This document shows, piece after piece, positions 15,401-62,770 of a DNA stretch of 64,000 nt. The position numbers and the translations under genes were made by a program. Origin of the DNA: Microvelia longipes (taxonomy: Eukaryota > Arthropoda > Insecta > Hemiptera > Veliidae); the NCBI GenBank assembly GCA_018340805.1, contig JACMZG010001911.1, positions 28,311,094 to 28,375,093 on the forward strand. Direction: 5' to 3'. The notes below the pieces were generated by a model. That model saw only the letters and a list, made by a program, of their open reading frames with translations, searched no databases and was not told the DNA's origin. How positions within the stretch are numbered: the first letter of the stretch is position 1; each line of letters opens with the position of its first letter.

Positions 15401-18400
15401 TATAATACAATTAATCAGACGCGTTTCGGGAAGTATCTCATCATCAGTGTATATCTAAACTAAACTTGAATTTATATTTATACTTTAAATTTTGACTAAT
15501 GGTGATTGCCTATTAAACCTAGTTTTATCATTGAAACATGAGGTATTATTACTTAGGCACTTGTTAATTCTTAGTACAGGTAAAGAAACCCCCCTTTTCA
15601 TTTGTTCCCTAGATATAATATGTCTCCCACCCTTCTAACTTTGCCACTTACACACAGCAATAATAAATTTAAGTTAAGTTTATATATATAATGATGATGG
15701 AATACTTCCCGAAGTGTCTGATTAAGTGTATTTTATTGTGATATCAGACCAAGTATAATTAAAAACAAGTTGGGGTACATCAAGTTGATAGTATAGTTTC
15801 CTACCTTGGACTACACATCAGAAAAAAAATAAAAAATAGACAATCATAGCTTACCAGTAACATAAACAACATTCATAAGTCTCCTCATACTCCTAGGGTT
15901 CACATCAGAGAAATAATCATCAGTTAGAAGCATCTTGGTCAGGTCAAACGGACCCCCAGCTCTGTTCAAATTTGACCCTAAGCTTGAAGCGATGGATTCA
16001 CTCAGTTTAAGCTTCCTAGATCCTCTTTGACTGGAACCTTTAATTTTTAATTTATCAGGTGGTAAAGAATTATTAGCCTCAGACAACTTTCTGATTGAAC
16101 CCTGAAATAAATTTTATCATAATATAAATAATTCAATATATAAAAAAATATATTAAGAACAAGTGAAGAGGCATAAGTAATAATTCTAGAAGACAACCGA
16201 GAATTAAAAAATATGTGAATGTGAGAAAAAAAAACAGTTTAGCCAGTTTTGAATGGAATGGTTTACCTGTTAAATTTTACTACATTATTTATTTTGTTTT
16301 TAAATCACACATCAGCTACAACTAATAAATGGTTACAACAAACTATATTGATTTTGGCTGTTGTTGGAATTACACTGAAAGCAAGAATATAAATGTTTCT
16401 TTAATGTTTACTTCTTGGTCAGGCTTTAGTATTGTGAAAAATCCTCAGTCAGTTCAGTCAGCGGGGATTAAAATATTTATTGTTTTATAATAGATGCAAT
16501 GGATAAAATTAAACATATAAACTTCATTAGAAACGGTGGTGCAAGAGGAGTTCATCATATAATGAGAAGTAACAAGTATTTTACTGAATTAGTTCCATGT
16601 CAAACAAAGTTGGCTTTCAACCCCATAAAGGTTATCATCAGTGCTTGTTCAGTCGCGTTGCTAAACTAGCAAACGCTAGTTTAGCCTATAAAAGTGCACA
16701 TGACTGAACAAGTTCTAATATTATTAGAATCAGTAGTGATTTTAATCTCTCCGCTGATTTTTAATCTCTTCATCATATAAAGTTGTTTCAGCTTTATAAT
16801 TTGTAAATTCAAATTAAAAGCTTAAGTGTCCTTATTATAATAATTAAATTATTTTTTTTACACAAACCTCTAAAACATTAAATAAAAACTTACAGATCTA
16901 GGAATTTGGGGTTCATCGAAAGGATACAACTGCTGCGACCCTGCAGACTGCATTTTCCTTGAAGCTGATTTCTGAGCTGATCTAACTTTACGTAACCCTG
17001 AATTCTGAAGATAAAACGGCAAATGAACCATATTCCGCAGATAATCGTGTCCACCTATGTTGGACTCACTGATCAACCTTCGACTGTTTACTTCGACAGC
17101 CTTTAATAAAACATGAAATAATAAAATAAATTACTATCACTTTCAAAATTAATTCAAGGTTACACAAAAAATGCACAACACAATAAAAATCATGCTAACA
17201 ATCTCATTAATTTAATTTTGGTAATGAAAGTTACCTTAAAATAAATTAGAAGATAAAGTCTAAAGAAGTAGTAACAGGAATACATAATAAGGATAATATT
17301 ATGTTAACAATAAAACCATGCACATCTAATAAATTCATAAATTGAGGGATATAATTTTACAGCATTTATAAATTTATTTTCAAATTAGTAATTGGTTAAA
17401 AATAAATGAGTTAGTAAACATTTTAATCTATGAATCAAGGAATTGTAAGTAGCAGGGTAGTAATGCAATTAGAGTAAGAAAATCAATAAGTTAAATGTTA
17501 TTTTAAGAAAAAAAAAATAAACAAAAATATTAAGACAGAAGATTTCTATTATAGCATTAAAATCGGGTACAGGGTACCTCGGGACTGTTCCTCAACACAT
17601 CAGATTTGTTACTCTCATCCTCCCACTCAGGAATCACTTTGTTTGTTCTCAGAATATGAAAATCACCTAATATACATTGCAGAACAGCTTCGGACTTGCT
17701 ACGCTCTTTCTCAGATAGTAAATATTCCTTTTAGCAGTCACCCATACAGGAACTGACCTTGCCCAATGATGTTAACGATAATGATCGAACTAATTCATAT
17801 ATATACTTACCATATAGAAATGAAAATTAGTAAACTTATTTAAAACATAAAGATATACACTGGAGCTAGATTTATTATTATTTTTTACCAATTTAAAAAA
17901 AAATGTGTACTAGTCATTTGATAAAAATTGAACTAATTCTGATAAAAAAAACGAAACTTGTCACATTTGATGGTCTTATATAGCAGGGATACCCAAAATT
18001 CAGAGTCCCGCAGACCCCTATTGTAGATCAATGATGTTTGGCAGACCCCTATCTTTCTGGTTAACCCCTCTCCCTCAATTAATAAATTCAATAACTTATA
18101 CTCATCGATATTTTTTACGTAATAAATTTAGGCATGCAAAGGAGCTCTAGAATTTTGAACACAAAAGCAAAGCAGGTAATTCATGTGGAATCCTGGTTTT
18201 TGATATTTTGTGCAAACACAATATTTTCCACATTACCGACGTTATAAATGAGTAAAAGTAAAAATGTGTCATGCATTAGTTAACAAAGATTACACAAATC
18301 ATGCACCCGCTCATGCCTTTTCCAAATTATGATTGGCTAAAAGTGGACCTGAACCCAAAATATTATTGAGTTATAGACAATAGACCTCACAGTTAAAATA

Positions 18401-21400
18401 ATTACATGAAGAGAATAGCAATAAAAACTGAAGTGAAATAAAAATTGCTAGCAAGTCATTACTATATTCTCAACATCTACCTTAGAGATGAGAATGCAAT
18501 ATTTTATGGTTCTAACAACACTCTGATTTAGTGAATCAAATACAATCACTAAACACAAAAAAATGCATCTTTTTGAACAATCAACACTTAAGTATGATTT
18601 AGGTTACAACAAAGTCAAAAACAAGTAATATAGTTTACAAGGAATAAATCCATACATATATTATTGATATTTAAAGAAAAAATAGTTTCTTTTAAGAATA
18701 ACCTGGAAATCAGATCATGTTAAATGGTTCTTATACCTTATGGGCAGAATGAAATGGTATCCAATCTCCTACGAGGTTGGAGATTGGATCTAATCTCTAA
18801 TTATACACAACTGAATCGGTACCCCCCACTTCCCTTCTCCCACCCTCAACTTCTGTCATTCAAACAACTGCTAAAACAGTGGGTAAAAAATAATTTTTGA
18901 GTAGAAAGTTGTTTCAATGTTTTTTAGGGCACAAAATCGAATGAACCTGTTATCAGCTTACCATCTAATAAGTAAACTGGACACCTTTAATTTATATATA
19001 ATCAAATAAACAGCAAAGAATTACAGTAATACTTGTAGAAAAACATTTATAATACAAAACACAAACAATGTATAAAAAGCCAACAACAAATGATTTATAA
19101 CAACCTTAGCTCACTCTTGGAGTAGGTTCTAATGGGGTCACACGGGGCCCCCGAGGGCCCCAAAAATAAATTTAAAGATTGAGATAGGATATGCACCCTC
19201 TAGTAATATATCTCTATGACCTTTCCTCCATAATAAACGGTCAAAAAGCTTTTTCAGAACATTGGGATGTGAGATAAAATCAGGACAATCCCAGAAAACT
19301 GGGACACCTGGCATTCCTAGTTCAGACCAAATGTGAGAACATAGTAATGTACAAAATCATTGACATTCAAAATATGCTATACCACAACACCAAAACTAAC
19401 ATTAAACTTGGTTTATAATAAATTGAATATATAGAAAATCTAAGACCAACATTACTTTTAAACTACATAGAAAAATTCAAAAGTCAGTCCATAAAAAATT
19501 TAAAATAAAATAAAACAAGAGGCCTTCGGCCTCTTAGCTGCTACGTGGCGTTGGCGAAGGGAGCCTCATTGTGACCACATGGTTGTTGTCTTATATCAGT
19601 TTGTCAAATGGCATTTTGCCACAATATAAGCAAATTTTCAAATGTATTAGTCAAAAAACCTCATTTGTTTACATTATGTTATATATGTCAATCAATAAAA
19701 TCGGAACTAATACTGATAATAAAATGTAACTGTAAATGGTAATAAATAATAAAAAATGTAAATAGTAGTAAATGTGTGAAAAATTCCAGCCTGATCTTAA
19801 CACTATTTGAAGATTATGTTTGTAGGGTCATTATTGTAGGCATATAACGTCACTCATGTGTCATAAACAATAAGGTTTGGACATTAACAAGGCTGATTTT
19901 TGCATTTCATTTTGATCCGAGAAAGTGTGGAAAAAAATCTATGTCATTAGAATGTTTCTAAGGACATAAAAAGTTTCTAAGTCCCATAGAAACATCTAGG
20001 AACAATTATCTTGTATATCTCGTACATACACACATAAAAACACATGTATTCTTGATTAGTGAGCCCCTCCCCTTCCAAAAAATCCATGACCCCAACCTCA
20101 TAAGCTCATTTTTTCTGTGAACATTCACTAAAAATAGTTTGGTTGTACTTTAAAAGAAGTAGACATTTTAAGGGACTCGAGAAAGTTATTTTACAAATCT
20201 TTGATCATTGCATAAAGCTAAATCTCAGGACCTTATGAGGTTGAGTATATTAATATTTATTGTACTCAATTTAATATAACCAAGCAAAGAACTACTAACC
20301 TGCTCTAGATAACACTTTGATAGCAATGAAATAATTTTAACATCTAGTTACTATCATAACTTATGATTATTTTTATAATTATTAACTTAATAATAATTTT
20401 AGCTTTTACAACTATGATTCATAAACTAAGCTAAAAGCAGTACTAAGAATACTGCTCCAATAAAAATAAATTAATACCTATCTTTAAGAAAAACTTATTG
20501 CAAGCTTTTCCTTAAAATAAGCAAAATTTTAATTCAAATGTAATTAAAAGCATATAATTCCTAACTTTTAGGTCTATTTAATTTTTTTAACAAGTTCTTT
20601 ATTGGCAAAATTAGATCAATAAATCACATAAATATCAGAGCACTACAATTCATTTTTCAAATTAGCAAGCCTATGATGCAGTTATAATTAAAATATTACT
20701 AAGGCACCAGAGACATTTGAATGTATTTTTTTAGTAAACACTACAAGTTTTTTCTACAGTTAGTTTACAAACATATTTAATGTGCCCAGTGTATTAAAAA
20801 AGACGGCATAAGTAATATATAATTTTGTGTTAAAGTGTAAAAAAATATTTAAAAAAAAAAAGTTTTTGATGTCATTAGAAGAACTAGACACAAGGGTACA
20901 TCCCATTACCTTTATTAGAATGCAGATTTTAAATACTGCATTTTTATTCATTTAGTCATTAATAAAGAAGAGCAAAGTTCATTGGATGAATCAGCTAAAT
21001 AACTGAATATGGACACAAATTATTTAATGATATAAAGATAAATCAAATAAGTAATAAAAACATTAGAGGCCATAGTGAATTCCATTGATCATCGTGATGC
21101 ATAATCCATCACATGACATGAACAATTCAATATTTATTAACAAGAATGTTTTAAAATATTCTTAATTTTTTTTTAATGTGTTAGAGTAAAAATTATAGTA
21201 TAATCTATCTCATGGACTTTGAAGTTTTTCAATTATAGACAGCATAACAGCAGGGAATGATAAAGCATCCTTTTTAGAGTTATGTGGAACTTTTTCATAG
21301 GCTACCTAATAAGATCAAATAAATTACACAAGGCTTTTAAATATAAGTGGCTGCATTTAAGTAATATAACATCAATACAAATTACCTTTGAAATAATATG

Positions 21401-21991: not shown

Positions 21992-22074
<83 letters not shown>

Positions 22075-25000
22075 CAAATAATATAATTTTACAATTTAAG
22101 TTATTTTGCCCACATTAAAAGAGAAAAACCCTTGAGCTATGTGGCCAAATACATTGAAACAAATTAATATTGTTTCAAGTCACAAATACAAATATTATCC
22201 ATTGTACAAATATGTATTGTACTTTGTACAATACAATGTATTATAATTTAACTGTTTCATAATAAATGTTTACAACTTTCCTTCCATCCAATAAGAGCTA
22301 TCATTTTTTACGACTACTAATTACATATGAACACTAAGAAAGTTTATAGAAACTTAGACACCTATGTAACCTAAAATGTTATGGAAACATTTTTTTACAC
22401 CTACTAACTTATGAACACTAATTTAAAAACTTCCATACTTAATACAATTAAAGATGACTAAATTACGTTGACCAAGAGCTAAGATTTAAATTAATAAAAA
22501 AATTAAGTATTAATACAAAGTACTTCATCCATAAATAACACTAACTCTCTTATAAGAAACAAAGATACAGGGAAAAAAGTGTAGTAATAAGCAACAATGA
22601 AAAAAATTATTTTAAATTTTTACTTTTCCTCATTGAGGTACATAAAAAAGTATTATGCATTTCACATGAATCATCCGTTTCAGGTATTTATAGACCTCCA
22701 GAGTGGTTTTCACAAAGTGTCTGTCTGTGTGTGTATGTAATCATTATACAGAATTTAAACTTGGTGCAAAAACCAATCTTTAGGTCTAGCAGTGCTATTC
22801 AGAAAATATGTTTTATGAAGTCATTACCCATAATAAAAATACCAAAAATTGAACAATGTTGCAATCGGTTTGAGATTTGGCACGCATGTAGTCATATAAG
22901 ACCAACATATTTGACAAGTTTCATCTCATTATCAGAATTAGTTCAATTCTAATTGAACAACTCGTAATCGTTTTTAACAAAAAATGTAAAAAATCGTAAT
23001 ATAGAAATAATACGATTTGTTCCATCACGCAAAATATATCTTGGAGTTTTGTTGGATCATTAAAGTCAAGCATCGAGTAAGGTCATTGCCTGGATTGGTG
23101 AACGCTGTGAATAAAAGTAATGCATTTACAATAATAGCTGTAGACGTGAGGATCAGCGAAGCGAATCCAAAGTGATGAGGAAAAGTTCTGAGATACCCTG
23201 TACTTGATTTTTCAAAATAAATGTCTCTTATGTTTCAAGACAAAAAAAAACAGCTGTGAGCCTAATCGATTATCCTTGAATTAATTGCTTAATTTGTTTT
23301 ACAAGTAAATCTTAGAATCAATAAAATTAATTTAATAAAAAAGTAATACTATAAATAGTGATCTCCGTCTTTTACAAGTATGTAATCCCGCATTACATGA
23401 CAAAATATACGTTGCTCGATTAAACTGGGTTACTAAAGAAGAATAAGAAAAACATAACGAATCCAGAAAATCGTATTTCTCGCGATTATTTTAATAAAAC
23501 GACTAAATTTAACACTTAATTAGAATATTAATTAAATTTAAAATCATATTTTACTTTATTTTCTTAGTTTAAAACACCAAGATTGCTTTAATGATCGATA
23601 TAAATGAAGAGTTATAAATTTGTTTAAGTATTACACAGGGACTCGCGTGAAAGAATCAAACGAAGGAAACCCGATTTAAGTAAGCCTTTTTAACAATTTA
23701 TTATTTACTTTAATATTAATTAGGGTTTTAATAAATTATAAACGTTACCCTAGACTTCACAATGCTTGAGTACGCTAGTTACGGCAGGCTTAAATAACGC
23801 TGCTATTAACACCTTGAGAGATATTTGAGAACGCCTGGTTTTAGTTGAATGAAAATAAAGTTCTGGAGTCCTAGATAGGAAAACTGTATGAATATATAAC
23901 ATGTTTTAGATGGATTTACTTTGTTCACACTAAATTAATTGTTTGGTCTTACTATTAAGAGTAGTTCTTTTCAAACAAGTAGAAATCCTATCAGATCAAA
24001 TCCAAGATCGGAGATCAATAGAATTGTTTCCCTTACAGAGTTATTCCATATTTTACAACGTAAAGATTGTAATTCATCCACTTGTTTAAGCATAGAGAGA
24101 GAATGTGTTTCCCAAAAGTGATGTAGAAAGTCATACAGTAGACGTGGGCGGTGCCGGACACAGTGTTCCAACTCCCTGGTTTGAGGTGGTCCTAAAAAAA
24201 GGGGCCAGTCGCATCAACTACTGCACTGAGCGCTAGCTCTCAGCTTGTACCGCTGTTATCAATATGGTTGTCTTTTTATTAAATTGAGACATCTATAAAT
24301 GTTTATAAAGAATGTAAACAAAACTTTTACTTATATTTGAACATTCTTAGTTGTTTATAAGATTATTTGTCTAGAAAATAAGATAAATTTTGCATCAAAA
24401 GCACAAATAAAGAACACAATGAACACGAAAAGTAATTTCCATTTCTGCACGTTATGGTTATCATGGTATCAGGTCTAGTTGAAAATAACACATCATTTTT
24501 TTATTATATTTTATATAAATTTAAAAAAAATTAAAATAATTATACAATTTTTAACAGTGTTACAAATCCTTTTAAATAAATTTAATCTTGGAAATGAAGA
24601 AATAATTATTTTATACATGTGGGACAAGGTGAACGACCTGCCTGTAGTGAAACGTCGTACTATACACAGGCCCATCTAAAGCAGCTTATTCCAGGGGAGT
24701 TGGACCACTGTGTCCCATGCCCCCACCCGTACAATATGATTTTCTTTATCACTTTATAATTACTATACGTTTTACAAGAGAAATGGAATGAAGCCTGCAG
24801 AGGGAATATAATCCCATACATTTTACAAGGGAAATGGAATGAAGCATGCTGAGGGAATATAATCCCATATGCTAAACAAGGAAAATGGAATCAATTCCGC
24901 TCAACCAATAACCAGGAAGAACTGTTTGTAATGCAACTGCCATGTCACGCCTATAAGCAAAATGACCTCTAAAGTATAAGCTTTTAGAGAATTCTTATCA

Positions 25001-28000: not shown

Positions 28001-31000
28001 TATATTTTTAATTATAATTAAAAATTAAAACAATGTTTATGTTTTAATAATAAAAAAAATAAAAAAATATGATACAATTATAGTACCAATTTTGTTCACT
28101 CATTATTTATTTTCATACACCTGAAGGTTCAAATAAATTAAAGAATTATCACGTTTTTAATGAAAAAATTATTTTCCAATAAGTTTTTATATAATCATCA
28201 TTAAACATAAATAATTTTGTTGTACTATAGAAAAATAAAGTTAAAAATCTTTTTTAAAAATATAAGATTTTATTTTTCCATTGCTTTATTAATTAATTAA
28301 AGTTAAGGTGTGTCATAGAGCTTCATATTTAATAATTTAAGAAGTTCTCCAAAAATAATGATACTTTTATTACAGCTCTGTTCTTAGCATTTTGCTAACA
28401 CACTTAACCTAGACTGGGAATAGTTAGTTCTCATCTCGGTTCTTTCTACAAAAGACTAAGATCAAAGAAATAGCAGGTACCCAACGTTAGAAAAAAATGC
28501 CTATAGGGACTAAGTGACTTTGCTAAATGCATCTTACTTGGTATCAAACTTTGTATCAATTGCAGGGATACAAGTTGTTCTACTTTTTAACCTGTATCTG
28601 AAAAGAACCAAATTAGGTACAGGGTACCTCAGTGCTTTTCCTCACAACTTTGGACTCGCTTTTCTCTTTCTCAGAATTTCATGATTTTCCAAAGCTTAAG
28701 ATAATATTACTTCGGTCTTGCTATGCTTGACCTCAGAATCAAATATTCGTCATAAGTCTCCAGTGTCCCGACTAGCTTTTCTTATCTTCAGAGTGTCATA
28801 ATTATTAGGTAACTCTTTACTATATGTCTAAAAAATAATGTCTTAAAAATATCATCTAGGCAGCACAACAGACCTAAAGTCTGATTTTTGTGCCAAGGTT
28901 CAACTCTCTAGCATAATAACATTGGGACTTTTGCTTGACACACACACAGACAGATATCATGTAAAAACACTCAGAAAGTCATAAAAATGCCTGAAACGGA
29001 TAGTTATGATGAAACCTTTTTCTGTTTTCTGAAACCGGTCTCTGATTTTTATGGTGAACACAATAATTTTCCTATATACTTTCAGTAGTAGGTGAGGAAG
29101 GATAAAAAATAATTTTGGAGTATACAAGGTTTTAGAAACTACATTTTATTTCAAGAAACTTGATAACCATCCCGAGCTTAGTAAGACATACATCATGGTT
29201 TTTGTACAAAATATATATAAATCTGGATAAACTAATCTGGCAGGGACCTTAAAATTTTCCCCAAATTTCTGAGTTTGTTATAATGCTGCCTCACTAAAAT
29301 GATCAATAAACCTCACTAATAAGAAAACCATAACTGAAAATATGTGTAGTTTAAACAGGAACAGGGTACCTCAATACTTTTCCGCACAACTTCCCCTCAC
29401 TCTTCCTCAGAATATCATGATTATCCAAAGCTTAAGACAATATTACTTTGGTCTCGCTGTTCTCTACCTCAGAATTACCTGATGTTTAACATGGTATAAC
29501 TTCAGTCTCGCTACGCTCAACCTCAGAATTATTAGGAATCCAAATATCTAAGGTGGTATAGCATTAAGTCAATTAAAACTAAGAGAAGTAATATAATTAA
29601 TAGGCATTCAATCAAGTAATACGGATAATACTGCATTCAAGAATGCTGTAAAGGTCTGTGATTGTACTTGACAGTCTAGTTTTTTAAAGTATTGTTCTTC
29701 ATGAGAATATTAGCACAACTTTTTATCAAGGCATCATATTTATAAGCTGTATAGCAATGGAATTTCCACAAATAATTCATAGTACGTTTCGCCATGTGAC
29801 AATATATCGAACGTTGCAAATCAGTTAAAAAAAATCGGGTACGAGGTACCTTTGAACTTTTCCTCATTACATTGGATTTGCTACACTCATCCTCCCTATT
29901 TCGGACTTGCTTTGCTCATCCTCAGTAAATACGATTCACCAATTTTATACAGCAGCATGTCTTCTGACTCTCTGCGCTCGTCCTCAGATAGTAAATGCAT
30001 TCATTTCATTCCCAGCGGTCACCCATACAGCAAACACCACGATCAATGCTGCCTAACTTTAATGATTAATAATCATAATTTAAAATAATCATTAATTTAA
30101 TGATTCTGATTTTTTAAATTTTTTTAAAGACATGTAGTAAAGTCAGAGACAGTAGACAAGTCATTTGATAAATATTGAAGTAATGCTGATAGTGAGATGA
30201 AACTTGGCACATAAGTTAGTCTTATACATGGCTACTGATTCAACTTAAAATCTCTAAAAAATGTATTGATAGTCCACAATCAATTATTGTTGATATTTAA
30301 CAATAGGTGTTTCATATTTTACCTTTAAGTTAGAAAACATTATATGAGCATATTTCTGACTTCTGGTTGCAAGATGGACACAGGATCCATTAACATTCTT
30401 ATTACATTAGCAAAAAAGAAAACAAGTAACTTACCATTTGTGTCATAAGAGTTACTTCCGATCTAAGTGCCTGCAGAAACCCTTCTGACTTGACTGTATC
30501 TATCTTAGCTATAGATCTCTGAAGTTTTGTCCTCTGAGAGAATAGTAATGAACTAACAAGCCTAGATAGTGAATAACTGTTAGCTATTAAAGTTATCAGG
30601 ACTAATGCACCACAAACTCCAAATAGAATGTAACTTGTCATGTGTTTCAGAACAACTTCATTTCTAAAACAAAATACACAAAAATATCCCTATACAAACA
30701 ATTTAGTCAGTACATTGTTTTACACTAAATTGTTTTGAACACAATTGGGTTTCACACAGTAGGTAAATATTACATAAGTCCTTTATATAGAGTGTATTTT
30801 GTACACATATTGTTTGCCTGGTGATGACAAGCATCTTCAGTTAGGTATAGAATAAAAAGAACTTTAGAATTTTACCAAAGTGTTTACAAAAAAATTAAAT
30901 AGACTTTTCCTCATCCTTTAAATATATAAGTTGTTAAATTTACACTGCAAAACGTCTTCAGATTCGCTTCGCTTGTTCTCAAATGGTAAATACATTCGAT

Positions 31001-34000
31001 TTATTCCCAGCAGTGACCCATCCAGGCATTGACCACACTTGATGCTGCTTAACTTTTATGATCCATCAAAATTCATAGATATACTTGTCGTATTGAAACA
31101 AGACTTAGTGTACTCCTTTTATTATATAAAGGTAAACACTTGTACCAAATTTCTACTCAATTAGATTATTTTCTGATTTTTTTACAATTTTTCAAAAAAA
31201 CTGAAAAAACTAATACTGATGAAGAGATAAAACTTGACGTTTATGATTTTTCAAAAATTTGGCTGTGTCATTATTGCAGGTTAATGAAGTGATAATAGTT
31301 ATTTATGCCATAAGGCTGAGAAGTGTGTCTTTATGTCACGGCAATTAGATTTACCGACGAGCGAAGCCAGTCGGGAAAAATTGCCAAGACATAAAGACAT
31401 TCTCAGCCGGATGGCATACACTATTTTTTTTGAGGTAGCACTCATTAAATAAAGCACTCATTAAAAAAATCAAAAAATAGCCCTCATTAAACTGTGCTCC
31501 ATACTTAATTGAAAAAAACAAACGTCCAATTAACTCCATATTATCGTCGTCATTAAATTCATCCATAGCTTCACACTTTTACTCAAAAATGTAAAAGCTT
31601 TACAAATAAACACACAAAAATTGTCAATTAGAACACCTTTTAAAAACGAAAACAGAAACAAAATGAACGTTTTTAAAGAAAACTCATAAAGGTTTAACGC
31701 AGATTGTTTTTTGAACACACTACATTACAGTAATGGCGGCAACATATGAATTACTTTTACGTTCTAGGAGTTTTTTTACATTCATTATTGTCCTCGGAGG
31801 TGAAAAGTACTAAATAACCTCCTATAACAATAATGATTGTCTTCTCATCCTAAAAACGGTCCAATAAAGTGCTCAATTACGTACTACCTCAAAAAACCTA
31901 ATTATTTCCGGATAACACCACTAGACCTATAAGACTGATTTTTGCAGCAAGTTTCAACTCTCTAGCATAAATACACACACATACAAAACTTTGTGAAAAC
32001 CACTTAGGAAGCCTTAAAAAGACCTAAAACAACAATTTAGGAGACATCCTGATTTGGGATGTTATTTTTTTCGCAAACACAATACTTTTCCTGTATACCT
32101 ACAGTGTAAATGAGGAAACGTAAAAATATATTACAACGTAAGAATAATAATTAAAATATTAATTTTATTATTATAATCAGTTTTCATTAAATTTTAGAGT
32201 TTTTATGACATTAAAATATGCTTACTGTTGGTTTTTGAAAACACTTTGATGGTGTGTAAGTGTTTTGATTATTATAATGTTACTCTTTTTATTCACTAAA
32301 GGCATCTAACATGAACTTTTACCTTTAATAAAAAGTAAATTTAAAAAAATTTTATCACTTCTATTAATTCTTGAACCAGGGCCATGTTTTTGAATCTTTT
32401 GGGATCTCAAACGGTTACAACACCTATTTTCCACTTATTTCAAATGAAATAGAAACAGGTGTTACTCTAAAAGGTTTTAGAATCAGGCCCCAATAGAGGT
32501 ATAAAAATTTATAATAAAACAAGAATAGACCAGAATCTTAAGATCAGAAAAGAAGATCCAAAATCTTTCTGATTAAGCATTTATCATTTTTTTGTTGATA
32601 TTTTCTTCTTGAACCATACATCTCTGTTAATTATTTTTTTTTATCTATTTTCAATATGCACTATAGCTATAACTGTCATAAACAGTTAGGTATGTGACCC
32701 TGTCACATACCTAACAATATCAACCTCACCTAATAATATCACTCAGGTGCATATATCTGTAAGAGAGAATGAAGCTAGACTCAACCCCATGTCCATACCT
32801 AAAACCCCATTTATAAATAAATAATAGCTAATATATTGGCAGCAAAAATTTAAACTATATTCTAAAAAAAAATAAAGTTAAATTTATCCGACTACAAAAA
32901 GTATAGAAAATAGTTTAAATAATATTCTTACGGCTGTTTAGGAAGTTCAATAAGGTAAATAGTGAAGACTGCACAAATAAGAAGCATGCAGATAAACACA
33001 ATTTCAAATACCACTATACTTGGCAGGCAACATATCCTCCTGAATTTCCATGAACTAGCTGATTTAGCTGTAAACAAATTATACATAACACTAATTACAT
33101 ATAAAATAAAATTTTCTAATGAAAATTTGCCAATAACAGATGAAGAATAAAGAAAGACAAAAATATAAGCTCACAGTAAGAAATATTGTGCATTAACAAG
33201 GAAGCTGAAAATAGAGATAACTTATATATCCTTGGAGTTAAATTTTCAGATTAAAAAGAGATTTTGGTGTTCTAGCTTTTTTGTGGTGTAAGAATTCAAG
33301 CAGTTCAATTTAGGAAAAAATCAGTTACAGGGTACCACGGAACTTACCCTTTCACATCAGATTTGCTACCCTCATCCTCCATATTTCGGACTCGCTTAGC
33401 TCGTCTTAAAAATATACAAGTCATTAAAATTTAACTTAAAAAATTATTTTCCGAATAGTACAGCTAGACCTATAAACTGTTTTTGTACAAAGTTTCAACT
33501 CTCAAACATAAATACACTGGGAGCTACAATGATAACAGACACATACAGACAGACAACTTTGTGAAAACCACTTAGGAAGGCTTTAAATACTTAAAACAGA
33601 TAATTCAGGAAACATCCTGGGTTCAAAAATTCAAAACTTTTTCTATATAGCTATAATATAAATGAGAAAAGGTAAAAACTATATCTTTACAGTTCAAAGT
33701 GGCTTCCATAACAAATAACCATTTAAATTTAAGAAATATTTTGTCCTTGATTAGTTTCAGCTTTATATTTGCTCAAACTTGTAGGCGTCAAACAAACAAA
33801 ACTAAATATGAATTATACTAAAATGAATAATGTTGAAATGAATTTTTTAATTTAAGGATATTGAGTTTTACTTTTCCTCATTTTTTCCTTCATAGGTATA
33901 TTCCATGTACTATTCCTTTTCCTCATAGGTATATAGGACAAGTATTGTGTTTGCAAAAAATCCAAAACCGGGATGTCACCTGAATTGTTGTTTCAGGAGT

Positions 34001-43000: not shown

Positions 43001-46000
43001 CACTGACCATGCTCAATTCTACTTATTGCAGGTTAGTGACGTCATAAATAAAATATTTTTCCGATAGCACAATTACACCTATAGATTGATTTTTGTAGCA
43101 AGCTTCAACTCTCCAGCATAAATACACTGGAAGCTAAGATGATAACAGACACTCACACACAGATAAACATACAGACAACCACTTAGGAGGTCTTAAAAAT
43201 ACCTGTAATGGATGATTCAGGTGACATCCTGGTTATGATTTTTTTGCAAACACATTACTTTTTTTATATACCTATGGTATAAATGAGAAAAAGTAAAATT
43301 ACACAACTAAATTAGACATACACTAAGCAGGTTAGTATTTAAAAATAAGATGCTTAATATGTTTATGACAATAAAGCACAATAAAATCCAAATGGAAATG
43401 AATATTCACTTCAATCCTAACTGAACACTGTCATAAGATTGATGAATATTTTCGTAAATTAATCAATATATTTATTTAGTGCAGTACCTTTAATTGAAAA
43501 TAAAATACACATAAACTTACTAGAACCAAATATTTGACCAAGTATTGTTTTGGGATGAGACATGTCAATGTTGTAAGCAGTTTCGCCCGATCTATTAGGC
43601 CTGTACAGTAATTGTGAGTTTTTTGGATTCCTCAGTAATATTTCAACTATGGCTTTAGACCTTGCTCTCATGGCTATGTGAAGTGCTGTATCTCCCCATT
43701 TATCAGCAGCATTCACTTTAGCTTTGCGCTCAAGAAGAAGTTGAACTGCTTCAGCATTCTTACTCCTGACAGCCCTCAAAAGAGCAGTATCACCATCCTA
43801 CAATATAAAACACCTCAATTTAATTCAATTAATGATTCAATATTACAATCCTAAAATAAAAAACAATTCAATTCAATTGATAATTCAGCTTTACTTTCTC
43901 TTCTAAGTTCTCCCTGGTTCAACGATTTTAAAGTTTTCCATACATTATCAGGATGTATCTGAATACAGGTAATAAAATATTTAAATTAGAACTTACTTTT
44001 GTACAAATTTCTAAATCTGGATTAGCAGATAATAATAATTTTAAAATTGGAATGTTTCCTTTCTCCACAGCATTATAAGTAGCAGTCTTTCTCTCCTGCA
44101 AATTAACATTAAGGTCTTATAACAACAGTAAAATGTTAAAAAATTTGACATATTGAATTTTTTATTTCTTTGTCATCAATCAACAAAACAAAAAACCATC
44201 AATTTTCAATCATACCCTCTAATAATCTAAATTTGATAACATCAACATGTTATAATTAAAAGACCCTTAAAAGTGTAAATTTGATTTATTATTAATAATT
44301 AGAATATAACAAGATGAAATTGCATTATAATTCAGCAACAGAGAAGGTTCTACCTTTTCTCCAATTCAATGTATGAATGTTATATATAACATCCATAAGG
44401 GGGGGGGGGCTTTTTTCACAATGCTGCAGATTTATATTTCCTTATCAACATTGAAATTTGTGCCATTCTTGCAACAAATAATAATAATAATAATATGGAA
44501 ATTTAAGTTAGTTCTAAGATATGCAATAGTATTCTAATCTAAGCTATGCTGAAACCATCATTTAGTCGACCATAGTTTAGTCAACAATGCCTAGGAAATT
44601 ATGTCCTAAGGTTATCTGGCTGCTAGCTCCGGTGCACTGTCAGTGGAGTATCTTACTGCTAAAGGGGGGTTGGTTGAGTAAAGAAGTGGTTCTCAGCTCT
44701 CCTAAAGTTCTAATTATACTGTGGCTATTCCTTAGACTCTGCTAGAACACATATGTGTTAAGAGTGGACTATAAACAGCCACATAATATACAAACTTAAC
44801 TCTTTTAACAACTGTCTCTGGTTGTAACTTAAGATGTATGATTTCTTTGCCATTTGTCTAAAGCCATAAGTTCACACAAATGGTACCGAACAATAAACCT
44901 CTAGTCACAGCGCAAAGAGGGACCATCCTGAACCCCAAACCCACTTAATAGTAACACAAATGGTCCTTTAGATTAAAAAATGTGTAAGATATCCAAATGA
45001 ACCAATTCACTAATGCTAATTTTACAATCTAGTAACATGAGTAAGTATTACCATTTTTTGGCTTAAAATGGTTTTATAAATAATTGAAAGTGTGAACTTA
45101 CTTTACCCGGAATGTCTATGTCAGCATATTTTTTAATTAATGCTTCAACAACACTACGATGTCCTCCTTTCACAGCATGAATAAGACTAGTATCACCACT
45201 CCTGTCCTGTTAACATAAGAAAATTGTTTTAAAATCATGACTAATCACATCTTAGTTCTTTTTACCTCGGTTAAACAAACCAATTATATAATATGAGAGA
45301 CAAATTAATATATTTTGTATCCATACTCGCAATAACCAGTGTCATGCATATGCAACAGTTGAAATAATATCGAGACAATATTAGGACAACATACTAGTAT
45401 AAACTCCTGTAAAACATAAGGAAATTCATGGCCTCCCACAAATAATATACATTTACTTTTTAAAGATAATTTTCGGATCATATTCACTAAATTTATCAAT
45501 TCAATAGACTTTGAAAAATTAATTAATTCTTAAGACAGAATTTCTCAAGATTCTTTTTTTATACATCCAGTTTTATATAACTTTCAGAAAACTGATTATA
45601 GAATATTAGCAAAAAGAAGAAGAAAAGAAAAAAATATTAAAAACCATATGTTTCAAGAAAAATTAAAAACAAAATTAATTATAACATAAAATATAAGTTA
45701 TAATTAAATTATTTTAAAGAAATAAATAATTTTAAAAAATAGTATAAAATCAATCAACACATTACAGGTACGAACAACAGACCTGTATATTGACATATGC
45801 TCCAGAATTAAGAAGTGCAGTAGCTATTTCAGTGTATCCATCCTTGCAAGCAATAGTAAGAGCAGTGTAGCCATCTTTATCTACTGCATTAACATTAGGA
45901 CGACAAGGTAGTAAGAGTGACACAACGTCCACGTGGTTTCCTTTGGTGGCTACTATCAGAGCTGTCCAAGAGTACTGTAACAAGTAAAGGAAGAATCATA

Positions 46001-49000
46001 ATAATGTCTTAATCATAAATAAGGAAACAAAATAATTAATAAAATCGGGTACGGGGTACCTGGGAACTTTTCCACGGATTCCCTATGCTCATCGTCCCTA
46101 CTTCAGACTTGCTTCGCTTATCCTCAGATAGTGATTACATTACTTTTATTCCCAGTGGTCACTCATTTAGCCACTGACAACAATCAATGCTGCTAAACTA
46201 TTATGATCTAACACAAATCATGGATACACTTGTCCTATTGAAACCAAACTTTGTGTACTTATTTATTACTTAAAGGTAAATAGTTCTACCAAATTTCAAC
46301 GCAATTGGATTATTTTCCATTTATTTGTACAATTTAAAAAAATGTATACAAGTCATTCAAAAAAAATAACTAATGCTGATAATGAGATGAAACTTAGCAC
46401 ACTTGTTAGTCTTATACACAACAGAGATTGGCAACATGGGTACCAAATCTCAACCAGATGATTATCAAAATTTTAGCTGAGTCATTATTGCGGTTTAATG
46501 ACGTCATAAAAATTTTTTTTCAGGATTGCACAACTACACCTAGATTGATTTTTATAACACGTTTCACACTCTAGCATAAATATATGCTGGGAGCTACTAT
46601 GATAAATAAGACACACACATACAGACAGAAAAAATTGTAAAAACCACTGAGAATGCCTTAAAAACACTTGAAATGGATAATTCAGGTGACATCCCAGTTT
46701 TGGATTTTTTTGCAAAAACAATAATTTTCCTACATACTGACAGTATAAATAAGGAAAAGTAAAAAAAATAATTGAGAAAACAAACAAAGACACACTGGGT
46801 TCTAAAAATCCATCAACAAATTAAGCCTGTTTTGATTTTTAAAACTTTTAATATAATATAATAATAATAATAATAAATTGTTTGTTTCTACCAAAAAGAA
46901 AAATTTACAATATTATTAGTATACATAATATCCTAAAATGAACAAAAAATTGTATTTTTAATTGTATTTTTGTTAAATTTTGGCAAGAGCCCTCAGTAGA
47001 TGTACCTTACACCTAGAGCGAGGGCTCTGTCTCGAGCTTTATCTTTACGTAACTTCACTTTTTATAAATTCGTAATGTTTGAATTACAGAATGCATTTTA
47101 GTATTAAAGAACATCACCTGAGCACAAGCTCCGGTGATGTATATGCGTATTTGCTACTTAAAAATATATACATATATGAATCCACGCACATAGATACCTA
47201 CAAAAACACACCTTATTGCTATTTTTGTTTTTCATAAGTGTGTTTGAAAAGAAATAAGAAAAAAAGAAATATTTAAACATTGCACTTATACTTAATGCAT
47301 ATTTCAGTTTATGCTGAGTAAAAGAATAAATAAAATGATAATATAAAATCTAATAGATTCAACTTAAAAAAAGTTTTTAGTCAACATGTTGAAAATATAT
47401 TGTTAGTCATCTGAGTTAAGGTATTGGTCCAGTAAATATGTTTTAGTCAGTTTTTTAAATGAGTCAATGGTTTTACAAGTTTGAATAGAGATAGGTAATT
47501 GATTATAATATAGAGGTCCGAGATAAACAGCGTGTTTTTGTTTGTTATCTGTCCTACATAAAGGTGTCAGTACAAAGTTAGTCTGTTGTGTTCTTGTCGG
47601 GTAAGTATGGTGTAGTGTTTGTTTATTTTCCTCCAAGAAGTATTTTATTAGCACAGCTTTTTGAAATAATTGCTCAACAGGGAGCACAGAAAAGTCTTTA
47701 AATATTTCTTTTGATGAATATGTCATAGGTTTTTTAAAGCAATTTTTAAAATTGCTTTTAAATATTTAAATACTAAAGCAAACTAATTTATACTTTAAGT
47801 CTTAATCTATCTGGTAATTCACATTTTGGTTTTCACAAAATGGTTTACCAGAGAACGTCTCATAAAAATCAATTTATTTATTGACTTAATATTAATTAGT
47901 CAAATACACACACTTTAATTACTTACTTTAAAGAAATAACAGAACACTTATTGTCATTTATTGTTGTACAGGACAAATGTAATTACAATAATAAATATAA
48001 TGAAATAGTAATGAAGCTCTTTCTAACCTAAACTTAATTATGACAAATATAATAAATTAAGTAGATAATTAATTATAGATTTCAACAAAACTTTAAAAGA
48101 ATAAATTTACTGTGAAGAGGCAGCTTACCATGCCAGCTGTATCAACATTTGAATTAGCTGATAGTAAGGCATCAACTATCTCAGCATTTCCTTTCCTAGC
48201 AGCCCAGACTAAGGCTGTAGTTCCATACTGAAATATAAATCAATAACAATACTAATTAATCAAACTAAAATTAAAATAAACAAAAAATGGATTAGGAACT
48301 TTTCCTCTCCTCACCTCGATGGACTCGTTTGGCTCATTTTCAGGATATGAATATCACTTAAATTATAAAGCTGGAAATCTTTATGACCCGTTTCGTTCTT
48401 CATTAGAAAAAAACTATTCTAGATCTATGATATAGCCTGCACTCCTGATACTTTTTCATTAGGAAATAATGATTCTTGGCCCATGATATATCCAGAGATC
48501 TCCTTTTTAAGTACTGACTGCACTTAACAAAGTGATCTGACAAACTATAGGTATGCACAATTATATAAATAATATTACAAGGAAAATATGCAAGGAAGAT
48601 AAAAGGAGATAATCGGGCCAAATGTAAGAATACATGTCATTCTATAATAATTGAACTACTGCTGATAAGATAAAACTGTAAAATTTTGAAAAGTGCGCTG
48701 AATTATTATTGAGGGTTCATTATATTTATGAGATGACACAATTGAAGGTTGATTATTATATAATAAATGGACTAAAAAGGTACTATGCAAACAGAAACAC
48801 AAACATGAAGACACTGAAAGGAACACCATAACACTCACACATACACTGAGTATAAATCCTGTTATATGTATCCTATATATAACTTAGTATATATCCTGTG
48901 TACAAATCCTATTTACACACATAAACAGGATGGAAAAGACCATACAAGAGATGATAAAAACTCAAAAAAATATTTAAAAATAAAATCTTTTTTTCAGATT

Positions 49001-52532: not shown

Positions 52533-53469
52533 AAAATCAAGTCACGGGGTCCTCACAACTTTGAACTCGCTTTGCTCGTCCTCAGAAAGTCATGATTATC
52601 CATAGCCTAAGATGGCATTGCTTTGGTCTCACTGAGCTCGACCTCAGAATAAAGTAGTTATCTGAAGCCTTGGTTGTTATGACTATGAACTCGCTTTTCT
52701 TGTCCTCAGAATTATTAGGTAACCAAATATCTAGGGTGTTATAGCCTTTGGTTAGTAATACTTTAGAAAAATAATACGGTAGATAGGCATTCAATCAAAT
52801 AATAAGGGTTGTGCTTAAATATTATGATCACAAATGCATTAAAGACCTGTGATCATACTTGGCAGCCTAATTTTTTATTAGTTTAGTTCTTCATAAGAAT
52901 ATTAGCACTATATTTTATCAATACATCACATGATTTAATAATTTAAGTTTTATGTGGAAAACCTCATGATTTTGACAGATGTAAGCACACTTTTTCATAT
53001 ATTTTCAAGCGTTTTACAAAAAAATATTCATGTTTGGCAGTAACTTACGAACTAAAAGTTTAAAGCTATGGAATTTCCACAACTTATTTATTATCTGACG
53101 ATATGTCACAAGTTGAAAAGCAGTAAGAAAATTATAATTGATTGGCTGTTAAAATTTTAAAATGTAATAGTCAATATTTTCAAAATGTCAACTCGAATAG
53201 TCAAATTTTTTATTTTTAACTATTTTTTAAAATTTTTGATGACTTGGCAAGATAGGCTATTGTAGTCTGAAACATACTCTCTCCAAGCAGCACAATTGAC
53301 TTAAAGTCTGATTTTCGTGCTGAATTTTAACTCACTAGCATAAAAACAATGGGGAATTATGCATGACATGTACACATAGACATCATGATAAAAACCACTC
53401 AAAACGTCATGAGAATTCCTGAAACGGATAATTAAGTTGAAACCTTGGTTTCAGATTTATGGGGTAAAC

Positions 53470-54803
53470 CAGGGGGGGTTAACTTAAATGAGGAAAAGTT
53501 TGGATTCGATTATCGCAAGCTACTAAAAATAGCGCTGCGGCGGACCGGTGCGGACAACTCATGAACTAACCCCAATAGCTTTCCAAAAATGACTGATTAC
53601 ATTTTTATATTAAAATGTAAATACCATGGCAATTCTTGGTTATGACAGCTACATTTTTTATTATTATAAAATGATTGTTTTCTGTATGTATTTTACAAAA
53701 ACGGTTCTCCGTTGCATGTTCTGTATTTTAAAAAATCAGAAACTAAAAGTAAATAGAAACCTTTTTTAAACTTCCAGAGAACCTTACTGATGGCAGATAA
53801 GTAAATTTTATTTAATTAATTTATTAATTTAGTCGATTTTATCAGGTAATTACATTAAATTACATGTTCGCATCTGGCCGATGTAATTAAAATACAGGCT
53901 GCATTAAATGTCAAAATCTATCTTCTAGCACGTGTAAACTTTAGCCACTATTTTAACGAATTGTGTGCCCCGAGTGCACACAATGTTTTTCTATTGCAAA
54001 AAAAAGCCATTAGAATTATTACAAAGTCTAAATATGATGCGCATTGTGCAAAACTTTTCAAAGAAAATAAGATTCTAACACTTTATTCAGCATACATTTT
54101 TTCAGTTTTAGTATACATTAAAAATAGACACCATGAATTAGATAATAATAAAAATCATGGTTATTCCACTAGATTTTATACAAATATAAATTTGCCATTC
54201 TCCAGACTTAGTAAGTCAAGTCAATCTCCGATGGTGAATGGAATCAAATGTTTTAATAAGCTGCCTACAAGTATTGTAGACCTTCCTATGGATTCCTTTA
54301 AAAAGGTTATTAAAGAAATACTAATTGATAAAGCATATTACTGTGTCAATGACTTTTTAAATGACAGTATAGTGTATCCTGAAAAATTGTAAACTGGTAC
54401 CTTTTTAACTTAATAATATCTTACATAATTTTTATTTATTGTATTTTTTTACGTTTTAATTTGTATTCATGAATTGACTATTGTGAGGCCTTTGAATGTA
54501 AGGCAACCACAAGCTTATAATAAATAAATAAATTTCATTATTACCTGATTGAATCAATTAAAATAATAAATTATTTGAATGAAAAACTTAAAAATAATCA
54601 GAAGCGTTCTGGGTAAGATTAAAGTGGTAGGGTATAAACTATAAAAAATATAAAAATTTCAAACTGACTGTGGGCAAAAAGCGGGAAATCAAGACACGCC
54701 CACTCAATTGAAAGGTAGGTCCCTCGCCGCGCTAGTGTCGACCAGAATCCAAATTTTTCCACCATTGAGTCGACAGTCTTACTGTTTAAGTATCTATAGT
54801 CTC
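53470..54803. mobile_element. 1.33-kb insertion with 10-bp target duplication
   Basis: The dispersed family copy at 52533 breaks off at tggggtaaac (53460-53469) and resumes after a second tggggtaaac (54804-54813) with the expected acaatac sequence. The block between is therefore an insertion with a 10-bp direct repeat. Its outer parts are unusually GC-rich and share a gaatccaaa / tttggattc inverted pair. The middle is the LINE 3' fragment. Confidence 0.75.
53930..54535 (+). pseudogene. LINE 3' fragment, reverse-transcriptase C-terminus and 3' UTR
   Basis: An open frame to 54392 reads NVFLLQKKAIRIITKSKYDA, AKLFKENKILTLYSAYIFSV, NHGYSTRFYTNINLPFSRL and CFNKLPTSIVDLPMDSFKK. This is a typical CR1-type ORF2 C-terminus. 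The 3' UTR ends in an ATAA-rich tail near 54535. It lies within a larger inserted block (53470-54803). Confidence 0.82.
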
Positions 54804-57436: not shown

Positions 57437-57973
57437 GGCTTTGAACTCTATATATTTAAATCTACTTTATGAATTTAAATCCCAACAGTATTGGTTTCAA
57501 TACCAATAAACGAGAACAAAACATGCCTCTCCTCTAAATTAAGTGAATTGACGTGAGAGTGTGGAAGACCACAGCTCTATTTCAAGTCATGGTTTCATTA
57601 ACATTTACCATTAAGTTGAGTCTTATCTTGAATTAGATGAACAAAAATATTTTTTTATGACATTGATAATTTGTTTCTTGACACTCCGCCTCTCCTCGGC
57701 AATCCACAAAGTGTTGCGGAGAGCTACATAGAAAATTCATCGCAAAATAAAGTATCAGTTCAAAGACAAATATTTAGTAGTTCAACAAATGAACTAACAG
57801 TTGTTACTAAACAAAATGATGCTATTCCAAGACCAAGCAAAACTAAGTCTCATATAAATAAAAACACCACGATAACAATATAAATAATGAAAGTATTTTA
57901 CAAAATTGTAATAATTGCACGTTTAATTTCTATTAAATTCTCAAAATACTTGTTTTTTGCTACATTTAAAAAA
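57437..57973 (+). other. Stretch with an unidentified 70-codon frame
   Basis: A frame ending at 57883 encodes LDTPPLLGNPQSVAESY and a polar S/T/Q/N-rich tail. The composition is protein-like but there is no ATG, no recognised domain, and frames break just upstream. It could be a fragment of a mobile element. Confidence 0.2.
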
Positions 57974-58730
57974 AATCGGGTACAGGTACTTCGGAATTTT
58001 TCCTCATCACATCGGATTCGCTACGCTCATCCTCCTGCTTTGGACTCGCTTCGCTCGTTCTCAGAATATACAATTTGCCACATTTATACTGCAACACGTC
58101 TTCGGACTCAGATAATAAATGCATTTGTTTGATTCTGCTAATTTATTTCATGCTGATAATGAAATGAAACTTGTCACATATGTTAGTCTTATACTATACA
58201 TGGCTAAAAGCGTGCCAAATCTCAATCCGATCGCATAATTTTTCAGCGTTTTAAAATTATTCGAAATTATAGCTGAGTCATTATTACGGGTTTATGACGT
58301 CATAAAGAAATTATTTTCCGAACAGCACAACTTCACCTATAGACTGGTTTTTGATCAAAGTTTCAACTTTCTAGCATAAATACACTAGCTCCCTATGATG
58401 ATAATAGACACACTCATACAGACAGACAACTTTGTGAAAACTACTCAGGACAGGAGGTCTTAAAAACACCTGAAACAGAATTCCGGTGACATCCCGTTTT
58501 TTTTACATATGTATGTATATATATATATTCGGCGGTAGACTGACTTTAGACTGAACTACGATGATAACAGACAGACACACACACATACAGACAGGCAACC
58601 TTGCAAAAACCACTCAGGAGGCCTTAAAAACACCTGAAATGGATAATTTCGGTGACATATCGGTTTTGGATTTTTTTTGCAAACACAATACTTGTTCTAT
58701 ATACCTACGGTATATATGAGGGAAAGCAAA
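57974..58730 (+). repeat. Dispersed 0.8-kb family, near-complete copy with TGACGTCA
   Basis: From aatcgggtacaggtacttcg to tatatgagggaaagcaaaaa. TGACGTCA at 58295-58302. Part of its right half (gatgataacagacagacaca) is duplicated around a short AT-rich segment at 58510-58560. Confidence 0.87.
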
Positions 58731-59134
58731 AATAATACAAAATTATATCTTTCATTTGTTGATTAAATTTAATTTGTTATAAAAAGTTTTAATCTTTTCC
58801 TTTGGAGATAAAATTTTGTATGCACCACAGAAGTGAATGGCTCTTTTGCCTCACATTAAATTTTATTCCTCGCCTACTCCTCGGGAACAATTTTGCATTA
58901 TATCTATCGGCATCATGATGATGTATAAAGTTATAATGTAAGAGTTTTAAGCTCCCTCGGCTGCGCCTAGGGATTTATAAACCTTATTTCCTTCAGCTCT
59001 GGCTTATTTTACTCCCTTGATTCATAAATAACGTAGTGCATTTTCTTTGGAAAATCCATGATGTGTTTAAAAAATCCAAACACATCGCCACACTTAATTT
59101 GTAGTTATAAACTTATGAAATGAAAATATACCAA

Positions 59135-59694: not shown

Positions 59695-59695
59695 T

Positions 59696-59764
<69 letters not shown>

Positions 59765-61186: not shown

Positions 61187-61309
<123 letters not shown>

Positions 61310-61630: not shown

Positions 61631-62096
61631 TATTAACAATGTTGTGTAATATAAAAAACCCAGTAGGGAAATTCCTGTACTAAAGTAATATATAAACCCA
61701 GTAGGGAGTTGGCTCAAATTATCCTTTGGGCGCAAGTAATTGTAATTTCAAGTTATATTTCAGGCATTACACTGTCGTCTGTAAGTTCTTAATAAAAACA
61801 AAATCTTAATAAAAACATGTGGTTTACCTTTACTACAGTTTCTCTTTTCCTTTAACTAAGTTATTGTAACAATTATATCATAGATTTTAAAAAAAAATCA
61901 TTAAATTGGCTCGAACATAATTATCAAAGTACGAAAACGCGATAAAAAGTAAAACTCACCGAATATTATCAGTGTTGCCAATGAAATTAAATAAAAACCC
62001 TAAATCCTAAAAGAGTCACGCGCAGTTATTCCAATCTTAGTTATTTTTTTTTTTATTTTTTGAGCCACCTATCAGCTGATCACGCATGTCTGAATT

Positions 62097-62770
62097 TTTA
62101 CTTTTCCTCATTTATACCGTAGGTTTATAAGAAAAGTATTGTTTTAAAAAAATTCAAAACCGTGATGTCACCGGAATCATCCGTTTCAGGCCTCTGAGTA
62201 GTTTTCGCAAAGTTGTCAGACTGTATGTGTGTGTGTATGTGCGTGTCTCTGTCTGCTCCCAGTGTACTTATGCTAGAAAGTTGAAATTTTGTACAAAAAT
62301 CAGTCTACCGCTGCAGTTGTACTATTCGGAAAATAATTTTTTATGACGTCACTAACCCGCAATAATGAATCAGCAAAAATTTCGAAAAATTAATCACGGA
62401 AAAACGATGCGATCCGATTGAAATTTGCCATATATAATACTAACATATGTGCTAAGTTTCATCTCATTACTAACATTAGTTAAATTTTTATCGAAATGAT
62501 TTGTATACGTTTTTTTAAAAAATTGTAAAATATCAGAAAATAATCGAATTGAGTTGAAATTTGGTACAAGTGTATCCCTTGATGTAATAAATAAGTGTAC
62601 TAAGTTTCATTATAATACAAGTCTATCCATGATTTTTGGTGGATCATAAAAATTAAGCAGCATCGAGCGTGGTCAATGCCTGGATATATGACCACTGGAA
62701 ATGAAACGAATGTATTTACTATCATAGGACGAGTGAAGCGAGCCCGAAGCTGGAAGGATGAGCGAAGTGT
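62097..62770 (-). repeat. Dispersed 0.8-kb family, reverse copy with TGACGTCA
   Basis: From tttacttttcctcatttata to gaaggatgagcgaagtg, with TGACGTCA at 62344-62351. It contains taaaaattaagcagcatcga and gacgagtgaagcgagcccga. Confidence 0.87.

What the first reader, a model, noticed from the sequence alone, without database searches (positions are those of the whole stretch)
17561..62770. High-density burst of an uncharacterised ~0.8-kb repeat family
At least 15 full or partial copies in about 45 kb, in both orientations, some abutting, some split by later insertions. Shared landmarks in order are: tcgggtacagggtacctcgg; aacttttcctcatcacat; two or more gactcgcttcgctcgtcctc motifs; tcacccatccaggcattgac; aagtcatttgataaaaattg; ttaatgacgtcataaa; gataacagacacacac; cacctgaaacggataattc; and a right end atgaggaaaagtaaaaa. 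The inner left aacttttcctcat is the inverse of the right atgaggaaaagt, suggesting a subterminal inverted repeat. No coding frame is shared, so it must be moved by something else. I do not recognise it as a described family.
Basis: partly seen in the sequence, partly recalled or inferred. Interest (0 to 1): 0.75.

Follow-up and report, generated by a model that had tools for sequence, protein, structure and literature searches.

The report
Rolling-circle transposon carrying 5S rRNA piece
The repeats are copies of an old, very abundant parasitic DNA element of an already known rolling-circle type (a non-autonomous Helentron) in an insect genome, and this particular family has picked up a piece of the host's 5S ribosomal RNA gene.

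Summary
In detail: a real ~0.77-kb family, 17 full or partial copies in the stated span by my hand merging (3 weak), none in shuffled and reversed controls. It is genome-wide: two searches gave 13,615 and 17,175 first-look candidates, the best 40 of each scored and all matching. Read on the opposite strand it has the anatomy of a HINE (DINE-1-like non-autonomous Helentron): T-rich 5' end, subterminal repeat ACTTTTCCTCAT, complementary repeat inside it, microsatellite, core tandem motifs, 3' subterminal repeat ATGAGGAAAAGT, palindrome GGTACCCCGTACC, end CGATTTT. One filled site against three paralogous empty sites shows insertion into a T-run without a non-T duplication. The landmark tcacccatccaggcattgac is part of a captured 5S rRNA fragment: the majority sequence matches the genome's own 5S gene at 47 of 54 nt. 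One intact Helentron-type gene lacks these ends in the flanks read; the wider partner search did not complete. New member of a known kind, with a gene capture I did not find in print.

The parts
46042..46765 (-). near-full-length HINE copy (5' end at 46765, 3' end at 46042)
   Evidence: profile positions 3-769, 633 bits
46749..46760 (-). 5' subterminal repeat of this copy, one mismatch to ACTTTTCCTCAT
46148..46208 (-). captured 5S rRNA-derived segment in this copy
   Evidence: consensus columns 574-634
46605..46629 (-). microsatellite segment (GT/GTCT-rich)
46048..46060 (-). 3' palindrome GGTACCCCGTACC, followed by the CGATTTT end
62094..62769 (+). HINE copy without its last ~50 nt; 5S segment at 62642-62702
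22616..23211 (+). HINE copy with both ends; 5' subTIR 22622-22633, 3' subTIR 23175-23186, 5S segment 23055-23112
17560..18265 (-). HINE copy; 5S segment 17732-17786
28610..29108 (-). HINE copy with internal loss; divergent 3' end
29354..29473 (-). weak 3' fragment
   Evidence: 24.9 bits
29831..30235 (-). HINE 3' part; 5S segment 30008-30067
30910..31295 (-). 3' piece of a HINE copy split by a 593-bp insert; 5S segment 31003-31063
31889..32126 (-). 5' piece of the same split copy
   Evidence: profile 3-265, continuing at 260 in the other piece
33317..33678 (-). internally deleted HINE copy with both ends
33911..34084 (+). 5' piece of a HINE copy split by a ~3.9-kb insert
   Evidence: profile ends at 537
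37979..38254 (+). 3' piece of the same copy (continues at profile 533); 5S segment 38021-38080
40033..40708 (-). HINE copy with both ends in which no 5S segment aligns
40782..41014 (+). HINE 3' fragment, 73 bp from the previous copy and in opposite orientation; 5S segment 40785-40844
42287..43298 (-). HINE copy with expanded core tandem motifs (GGACTCGCTACGCTCATCCTC on +); 5S segment 42977-43025
52534..53499 (-). divergent HINE copy; 5S columns fall in 52702-52829
57972..58733 (-). HINE copy with a second partial 5' end in tandem (58553-58733 next to 58038-58500); hardly any 5S column aligns
19681..19904 (-). weak internal fragment
   Evidence: 26.3 bits
48626..49057 (-). weak fragment
   Evidence: 30.4 bits
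2806..2923 (+).
   Evidence: 45.7 bits
   Evidence: 31.0 bits

Best explanation
The repeats are copies of one family of HINE, i.e. a non-autonomous Helentron (DINE-1-like rolling-circle DNA transposon), in what is most likely a hemipteran insect genome. Shown: ends, subterminal repeats, 5' complementary repeat, 3' palindrome, microsatellite, insertion into a T-run without a non-T duplication (one site), and a captured fragment of the host's 5S rRNA gene. Inferred from the literature on the group: a Rep/helicase/endonuclease protein of an autonomous Helentron recognises the ends in trans, copies one strand by rolling-circle replication and pastes it between Ts. The 5S piece was probably picked up as filler during such replication and then amplified with the element.
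For: 5' consensus TTTTT-ACTTTTCCTCAT...TATACCGTAGGTATA...AGGAAAAGTA folds as one hairpin, z -5.65; the 3' hairpin is weaker, z -2.55, 3 of 200 shuffles as good. Of 113 profile hits, 55 cover the 5' subTIR and 54 of these keep it within 2 mismatches; 40 cover the 3' one and 35 keep it. 3' subTIR, palindrome and CGATTTT end lie at consensus columns 733-770. The base after the 3' end is T in 41 of 49; of 58 5' ends, 43 have an exact ACTTTT and 30 of those 43 are preceded by at least 4 T. Filled L007 against empty paralogues L004(-), L004(+) and L049: ATG|TTTTTACTTT...CCTAATTTT|CCTTTATTATT against ATGCTTTTCCTTCATAATT (twice) and ATGTTTTTTCTTCATAATT. Head-to-tail junction in L067. 5S: consensus against the genome's own 5S gene scores 75, best of 1000 shuffles 28; the family profile by itself hits true 5S genes in 3 of the 6 5S loci fetched. 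An intact Helentron-type gene exists in the genome: Helitron_like_N, PIF1, Exo_endo_phos, UCH. Defining features as given in PMC4067079 and PMC7492417.
Against: No autonomous element with these very ends was found: the one Helentron gene examined has only loose matches (3-4 mismatches, no proper context) within 4.1 kb upstream and 3.0 kb downstream, and the search for more did not complete. Only one filled site has empty-site support; its flanks are only about 69-79% identical to the empty copy compared, with small gaps near the junction, and it holds two 5' ends. The upstream piece at the L067 junction is weak (15 bits). 5S segments in single copies are not seen by Rfam: 0 hits for 5S in the window and in 18 loci at E<=1, and the profile missed 3 of the 6 true 5S loci. 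At least one copy with both ends (40033-40708) lacks the 5S piece.
Confidence: 0.92

Rival explanations
1. A cut-and-paste MITE (DDE transposase) with subterminal inverted repeats.
For: Short, non-coding, abundant, has inverted repeats; DINE-1 was once called a MITE (PMC2374699, search listing).
Against: Inverted repeats are subterminal and asymmetric (5' T5 then subTIR; 3' subTIR about 38 nt inside with a palindrome between). No target duplication beyond Ts at the one filled/empty set examined. Head-to-tail fusion.
Confidence: 0.03
2. A SINE3-like retroposon: a 5S-derived Pol III promoter drives an RNA that is copied by a LINE.
For: A 5S-derived segment with the internal promoter region is present in 36 of 36 hits of at least 500 columns; the only T4 run downstream of it in the majority sequence is the element's end.
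Against: The 5S piece lies at columns 574-634 of 770, not at the 5' head; a T5 run at 565 lies inside any 5S-like transcript upstream of the aligned part. No A-rich tail in the ends seen; likeness of the 3' end to a LINE was not tested. One copy with both ends lacks the 5S piece. Conserved features on both sides that RNA copying does not need (subTIRs, palindrome).
Confidence: 0.03
3. A canonical Helitron (A^T insertion, 5' TC, 3' CTRR; features recalled).
For: 30 Helitron_like_N matches in this genome, many of which look canonical by eye; also rolling-circle.
Against: Element begins TTTTTACT and ends CGATTTT, inserts in T-runs, and has paired subTIRs.
Confidence: 0.02

Closest known systems
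HINE / DINE-1 (non-autonomous Helentrons; Thomas et al. 2014, PMC4067079, passages and section 8 read)
   Same: 5' subTIR near a T-rich end, inverted repeat just inside it (complementary to it in DINE-1), microsatellite, central repeats, 3' subTIR then palindrome, insertion in T-rich sequence
   Different: Carries a 5S rRNA fragment; partner not identified; its end sequences could not be compared with theirs, which are in figures and supplements not held here
Cg_HINE elements of Crassostrea gigas (PMC7492417, passages read)
   Same: Left module with subTIR, complementary IR and microsatellite; central tandem repeats; right module with subTIR and palindrome; partner also not identified there
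   Different: Their central repeats are satellite-like arrays; here short GAGGACGAGCGAAGCGAGTC-type units vary in number and a 5S fragment is present
Culex Helentron-Cq-32A with histone gene fragments (PMC4067079, passage read)
   Same: Helentron that captured a fragment of a host multigene family
   Different: That is a coding Helentron, eight copies with the fragments, protein-gene pieces; here a non-autonomous, genome-wide family with an RNA-gene fragment

Membership tests
HINE / non-autonomous Helentron | Subterminal inverted repeats of 11 bp or more, near the 5' end and about 38-60 bp from the 3' end | tested here: met
   12 nt perfect in the majority sequence; 3' copy starts about 38 nt from the end
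HINE / non-autonomous Helentron | Palindrome/stem-loop near the 3' end | tested here: met
   GGTACCCCGTACC 7-8 nt from the end; fold z -2.55, modest
HINE / non-autonomous Helentron | 5' inverted repeat complementary to the subTIR (DINE-1 and Cg_HINE type) | tested here: met
   TACTTTTCCT...AGGAAAAGTA, fold z -5.65
HINE / non-autonomous Helentron | Insertion between Ts, T-string at the boundaries, no target duplication | tested here: met
   one filled against three empty paralogues; 41 of 49 3' ends followed by T
HINE / non-autonomous Helentron | No coding capacity | tested here: met
   the 4 ORFs of 150 aa or more in the window lie outside the copies; shorter ORFs not examined
HINE / non-autonomous Helentron | Autonomous Helentron with the same ends in the genome | tested here: inconclusive
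   one intact Helentron gene found, ends not matching in flanks read; wider search unanswered
Canonical Helitron | 5' TC, 3' CTRR, A^T insertion (recalled) | tested here: not met
MITE (DDE) | Terminal inverted repeats flanked by target duplications | tested here: not met
SINE3 | 5S-derived 5' head (recalled) | tested here: not met
   5S piece at columns 574-634 of 770
SINE3 | LINE-like 3' tail (recalled) | not tested
   no LINE library compared

The most novel reading that the evidence does not exclude
The captured 5S piece is more than filler: it keeps the Pol III/TFIIIA internal control region, so the family scatters thousands of TFIIIA/Pol III sites whose transcripts would run through the 3' subTIR and hairpin and stop at the element's own terminal T-run, and this helped the family spread.
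Probability: 0.05. Interest if true: 0.65.

Novelty: new member of a known kind. Interest (0 to 1): 0.35.

Why it matters
It explains an abundant interspersed repeat of this genome and gives its ends for masking. It also adds an example of an RNA-gene fragment captured and amplified by a non-autonomous Helentron: in the passages of the Helentron paper that I read the captures were protein-gene fragments (histones, a membrane protein). Scattered 5S-derived segments may also confuse 5S surveys of such genomes.

Tried and rejected
Rejected: cut-and-paste MITE, canonical Helitron and SINE3 (see rivals). Rfam on the window at gathering score (nothing) and at E<=1 on the window and on 18 of the 70 loci then held: no 5S; matches were nearly all microRNA families below their cut-offs, on palindromes and simple repeats, plus two small-RNA families near chance. 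tRNA scan: nothing. A search of papers for the palindrome letters gave one unrelated paper. Papers searched for Helentron/HINE structure and for 5S with Helitron/Helentron/DINE-1/rolling-circle: listings read; in PMC8268682 the 5S passages concern a FISH probe. No report of a 5S-bearing HINE was seen, within a library that lacks most subscription papers and in which Repbase is not held; the two papers were not opened. Looked for this family's ends around the Helentron gene at C518: not there beyond loose matches. Looked for empty sites by joining 70-nt flanks of 39 element ends paired by script: no clean empty-site match, only self-alignments, the L067 junction itself and short partial matches; 200-nt flanks of the same kind (39 again), kept separate, led to L007/L004, and one search added L049. 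A count of 5S mismatches inside against outside the internal promoter boxes (2 of 39 against 11 of 31, Fisher p 0.0016) was made by eye from the alignment, is post hoc, and uses box positions recalled from memory; I give it little weight.

Full report
Host. The window is C562:28311094-28375093 of an unnamed assembly of 664.6 Mb in 1470 contigs. The ORF at 25277-27004, the longest of the four listed at 150 aa or more, is a Nup58-type FG nucleoporin. Its best named relatives are Halyomorpha halys and Nezara viridula at 43% identity; one unnamed sequence is 75% identical. The host is therefore most likely a hemipteran insect; the species is not identified.

Observation. De novo repeat finding, landmark scans and profile scans agree that the repeats belong to one family. 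Searches of the genome with two different copies scored only the best 40 candidates each, and 40 of 40 matched both times, out of 13,615 and 17,175 unconfirmed first-look candidates; with the first query most matches cover only its 5' part. The family is thus genome-wide. Local density is patchy: 22 further chained hits, some of them pieces of one copy, in the flanks of 29 loci that were chosen because they hold a copy, against 1 hit in L009-L040, which were chosen for Helitron genes or adjoin one (older profile). Requests for an unbiased sample did not complete.

Anatomy. Of 112 profile hits, 35 spanned at least 600 profile positions and were aligned to a 770-position consensus. The 5' 58 nt fold far better than shuffles (z -5.65, 0 of 200 as good); the 3' hairpin is weaker (z -2.55, 3 of 200). 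The 12-nt inverted match between the two ends was reached by 1 of 3000 shuffles.

Insertion. 41 of 49 3' ends are followed by T. Of 58 5' ends, 43 contain an exact ACTTTT and 30 of these 43 have at least four Ts before it. The L007 locus (copies at 1051-1441 and 1499-2455, same strand) sits in a repeat of which three uninterrupted paralogues were in hand: L004 minus strand, L004 plus strand and L049 790-915. The empty sites read ATGTTTTTTCTTCAT or ATGCTTTTCCTTCAT; the filled site reads ATG-TTTTTACTTT...CCTAATTTT-CCTTTATT. The insertion lies in the T-run and nothing but Ts could have been duplicated. This is one filled site only, its flanks are about 69-79% identical to the L004 minus-strand empty copy, and it holds two 5' ends, i.e. 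a partial tandem. L067 shows a head-to-tail fusion of a 3' end with the next 5' end across a shared T-run, though the upstream piece is weak (15 bits). All 12 neighbouring hits within 60 bp were in the same orientation, but many of these are overlapping tandem units within one element, and one pair 73 bp apart in the window is in opposite orientation (40033-40708 and 40782-41014).

5S capture. Consensus positions 574-634 match the genome's own 5S rRNA gene (found with RF00001): 47 of 54 ungapped, local score 75 against a best of 28 in 1000 shuffles (47 of 54 repeated). All 36 hits of at least 500 columns, and 50 of 113 hits in total, carry at least 40 of the 54 columns; mean identity of the 50 is 77% to the host 5S and 86% to the family majority. 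Most of the 36 were fetched as best matches to a copy that has the segment, so this is not a random sample; the window copy 40033-40708, which has both ends, lacks it, and 57972-58733 has hardly any of it. Independently, the family profile reports true 5S genes in 3 of the 6 5S loci fetched, about 31-33 bits, and misses the other 3. In the window 10 copies carry the segment. Rfam's 5S model does not report single copies.

Age. Hits with at least 500 aligned columns (36) lie a median 12.2% from the majority sequence, 11.7% by Kimura distance outside CpG. Most were chosen as best matches, so the family is probably older still; this is not a fresh burst.

Machinery. PF14214 gives 30 matches from 44 candidates in the genome. 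One (C518, L028/L039/L040) lies in an uninterrupted 2640-residue frame; the 2301 residues scanned hold Helitron_like_N, PIF1 helicase, an Exo_endo_phos endonuclease and a UCH domain: a Helentron by domain order. Its flanks as read do not carry this family's ends, so it is evidence that Helentron machinery exists, not that it is the partner.

Comparison. Thomas et al. 2014 (PMC4067079; passages and section 8 read) describe Helentrons/HINEs by subterminal inverted repeats, a 3' palindrome, T-rich boundaries and TT insertion; DINE-1 also has an inverted repeat by the 5' subTIR and a microsatellite. Vojvoda Zeljko et al. 2020 (PMC7492417; passages read) describe the same set in oyster elements. 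Each structural feature tested here is met; the partner criterion is inconclusive. Gene-fragment capture by Helentrons is also described in the first paper (histone fragments in Culex), so the 5S capture is a new instance of a known behaviour.

Function of the 5S part. Most likely passive cargo. A transcript starting where 5S normally starts would meet a T5 run at column 565 before the promoter region, which speaks against Pol III use; downstream the only T4 run is the element's end. The promoter-box comparison is post hoc and rests on recalled box coordinates.

Noticed in passing
57019-57390: Near-perfect palindrome, two 175-nt arms 95% complementary with a 22-nt loop; looks like a foldback/MITE, matches a microRNA family below its cut-off, and a piece about 96% identical over 143 nt lies in the flank of the HINE in L049.
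   Followed up: partly
31296-31888: 593-bp insert that splits a HINE copy and seems to begin with its own short imperfect inverted arms (by eye); the longest word shared by its two edges was 6 nt.
   Followed up: partly
34085-37978: About 3.9 kb with a reverse-transcriptase ORF at 35134-35871 on - splits another HINE copy.
   Followed up: partly
14742-15410: Second reverse-transcriptase ORF on - (RVT_1).
   Followed up: no
L039:2997 to L040 (G000:C518): Helentron-type frame of 2640 residues with an endonuclease followed by a ubiquitin-hydrolase (UCH) domain; the Helentron paper mentions OTU proteases, not UCH, in the passages I read.
   Followed up: partly
G000:C559: Seven Helitron_like_N matches within about 220 kb of one contig, none with a stop inside the match.
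   Followed up: no
L039/L040 upstream of the ORF: Head-to-tail array with units of roughly 110-130 bp (AAGGTTTTACTTTAAATGAAGGGTGGGTCCCTTATC...) upstream of the Helentron gene (seen output; unit length by eye).
   Followed up: no
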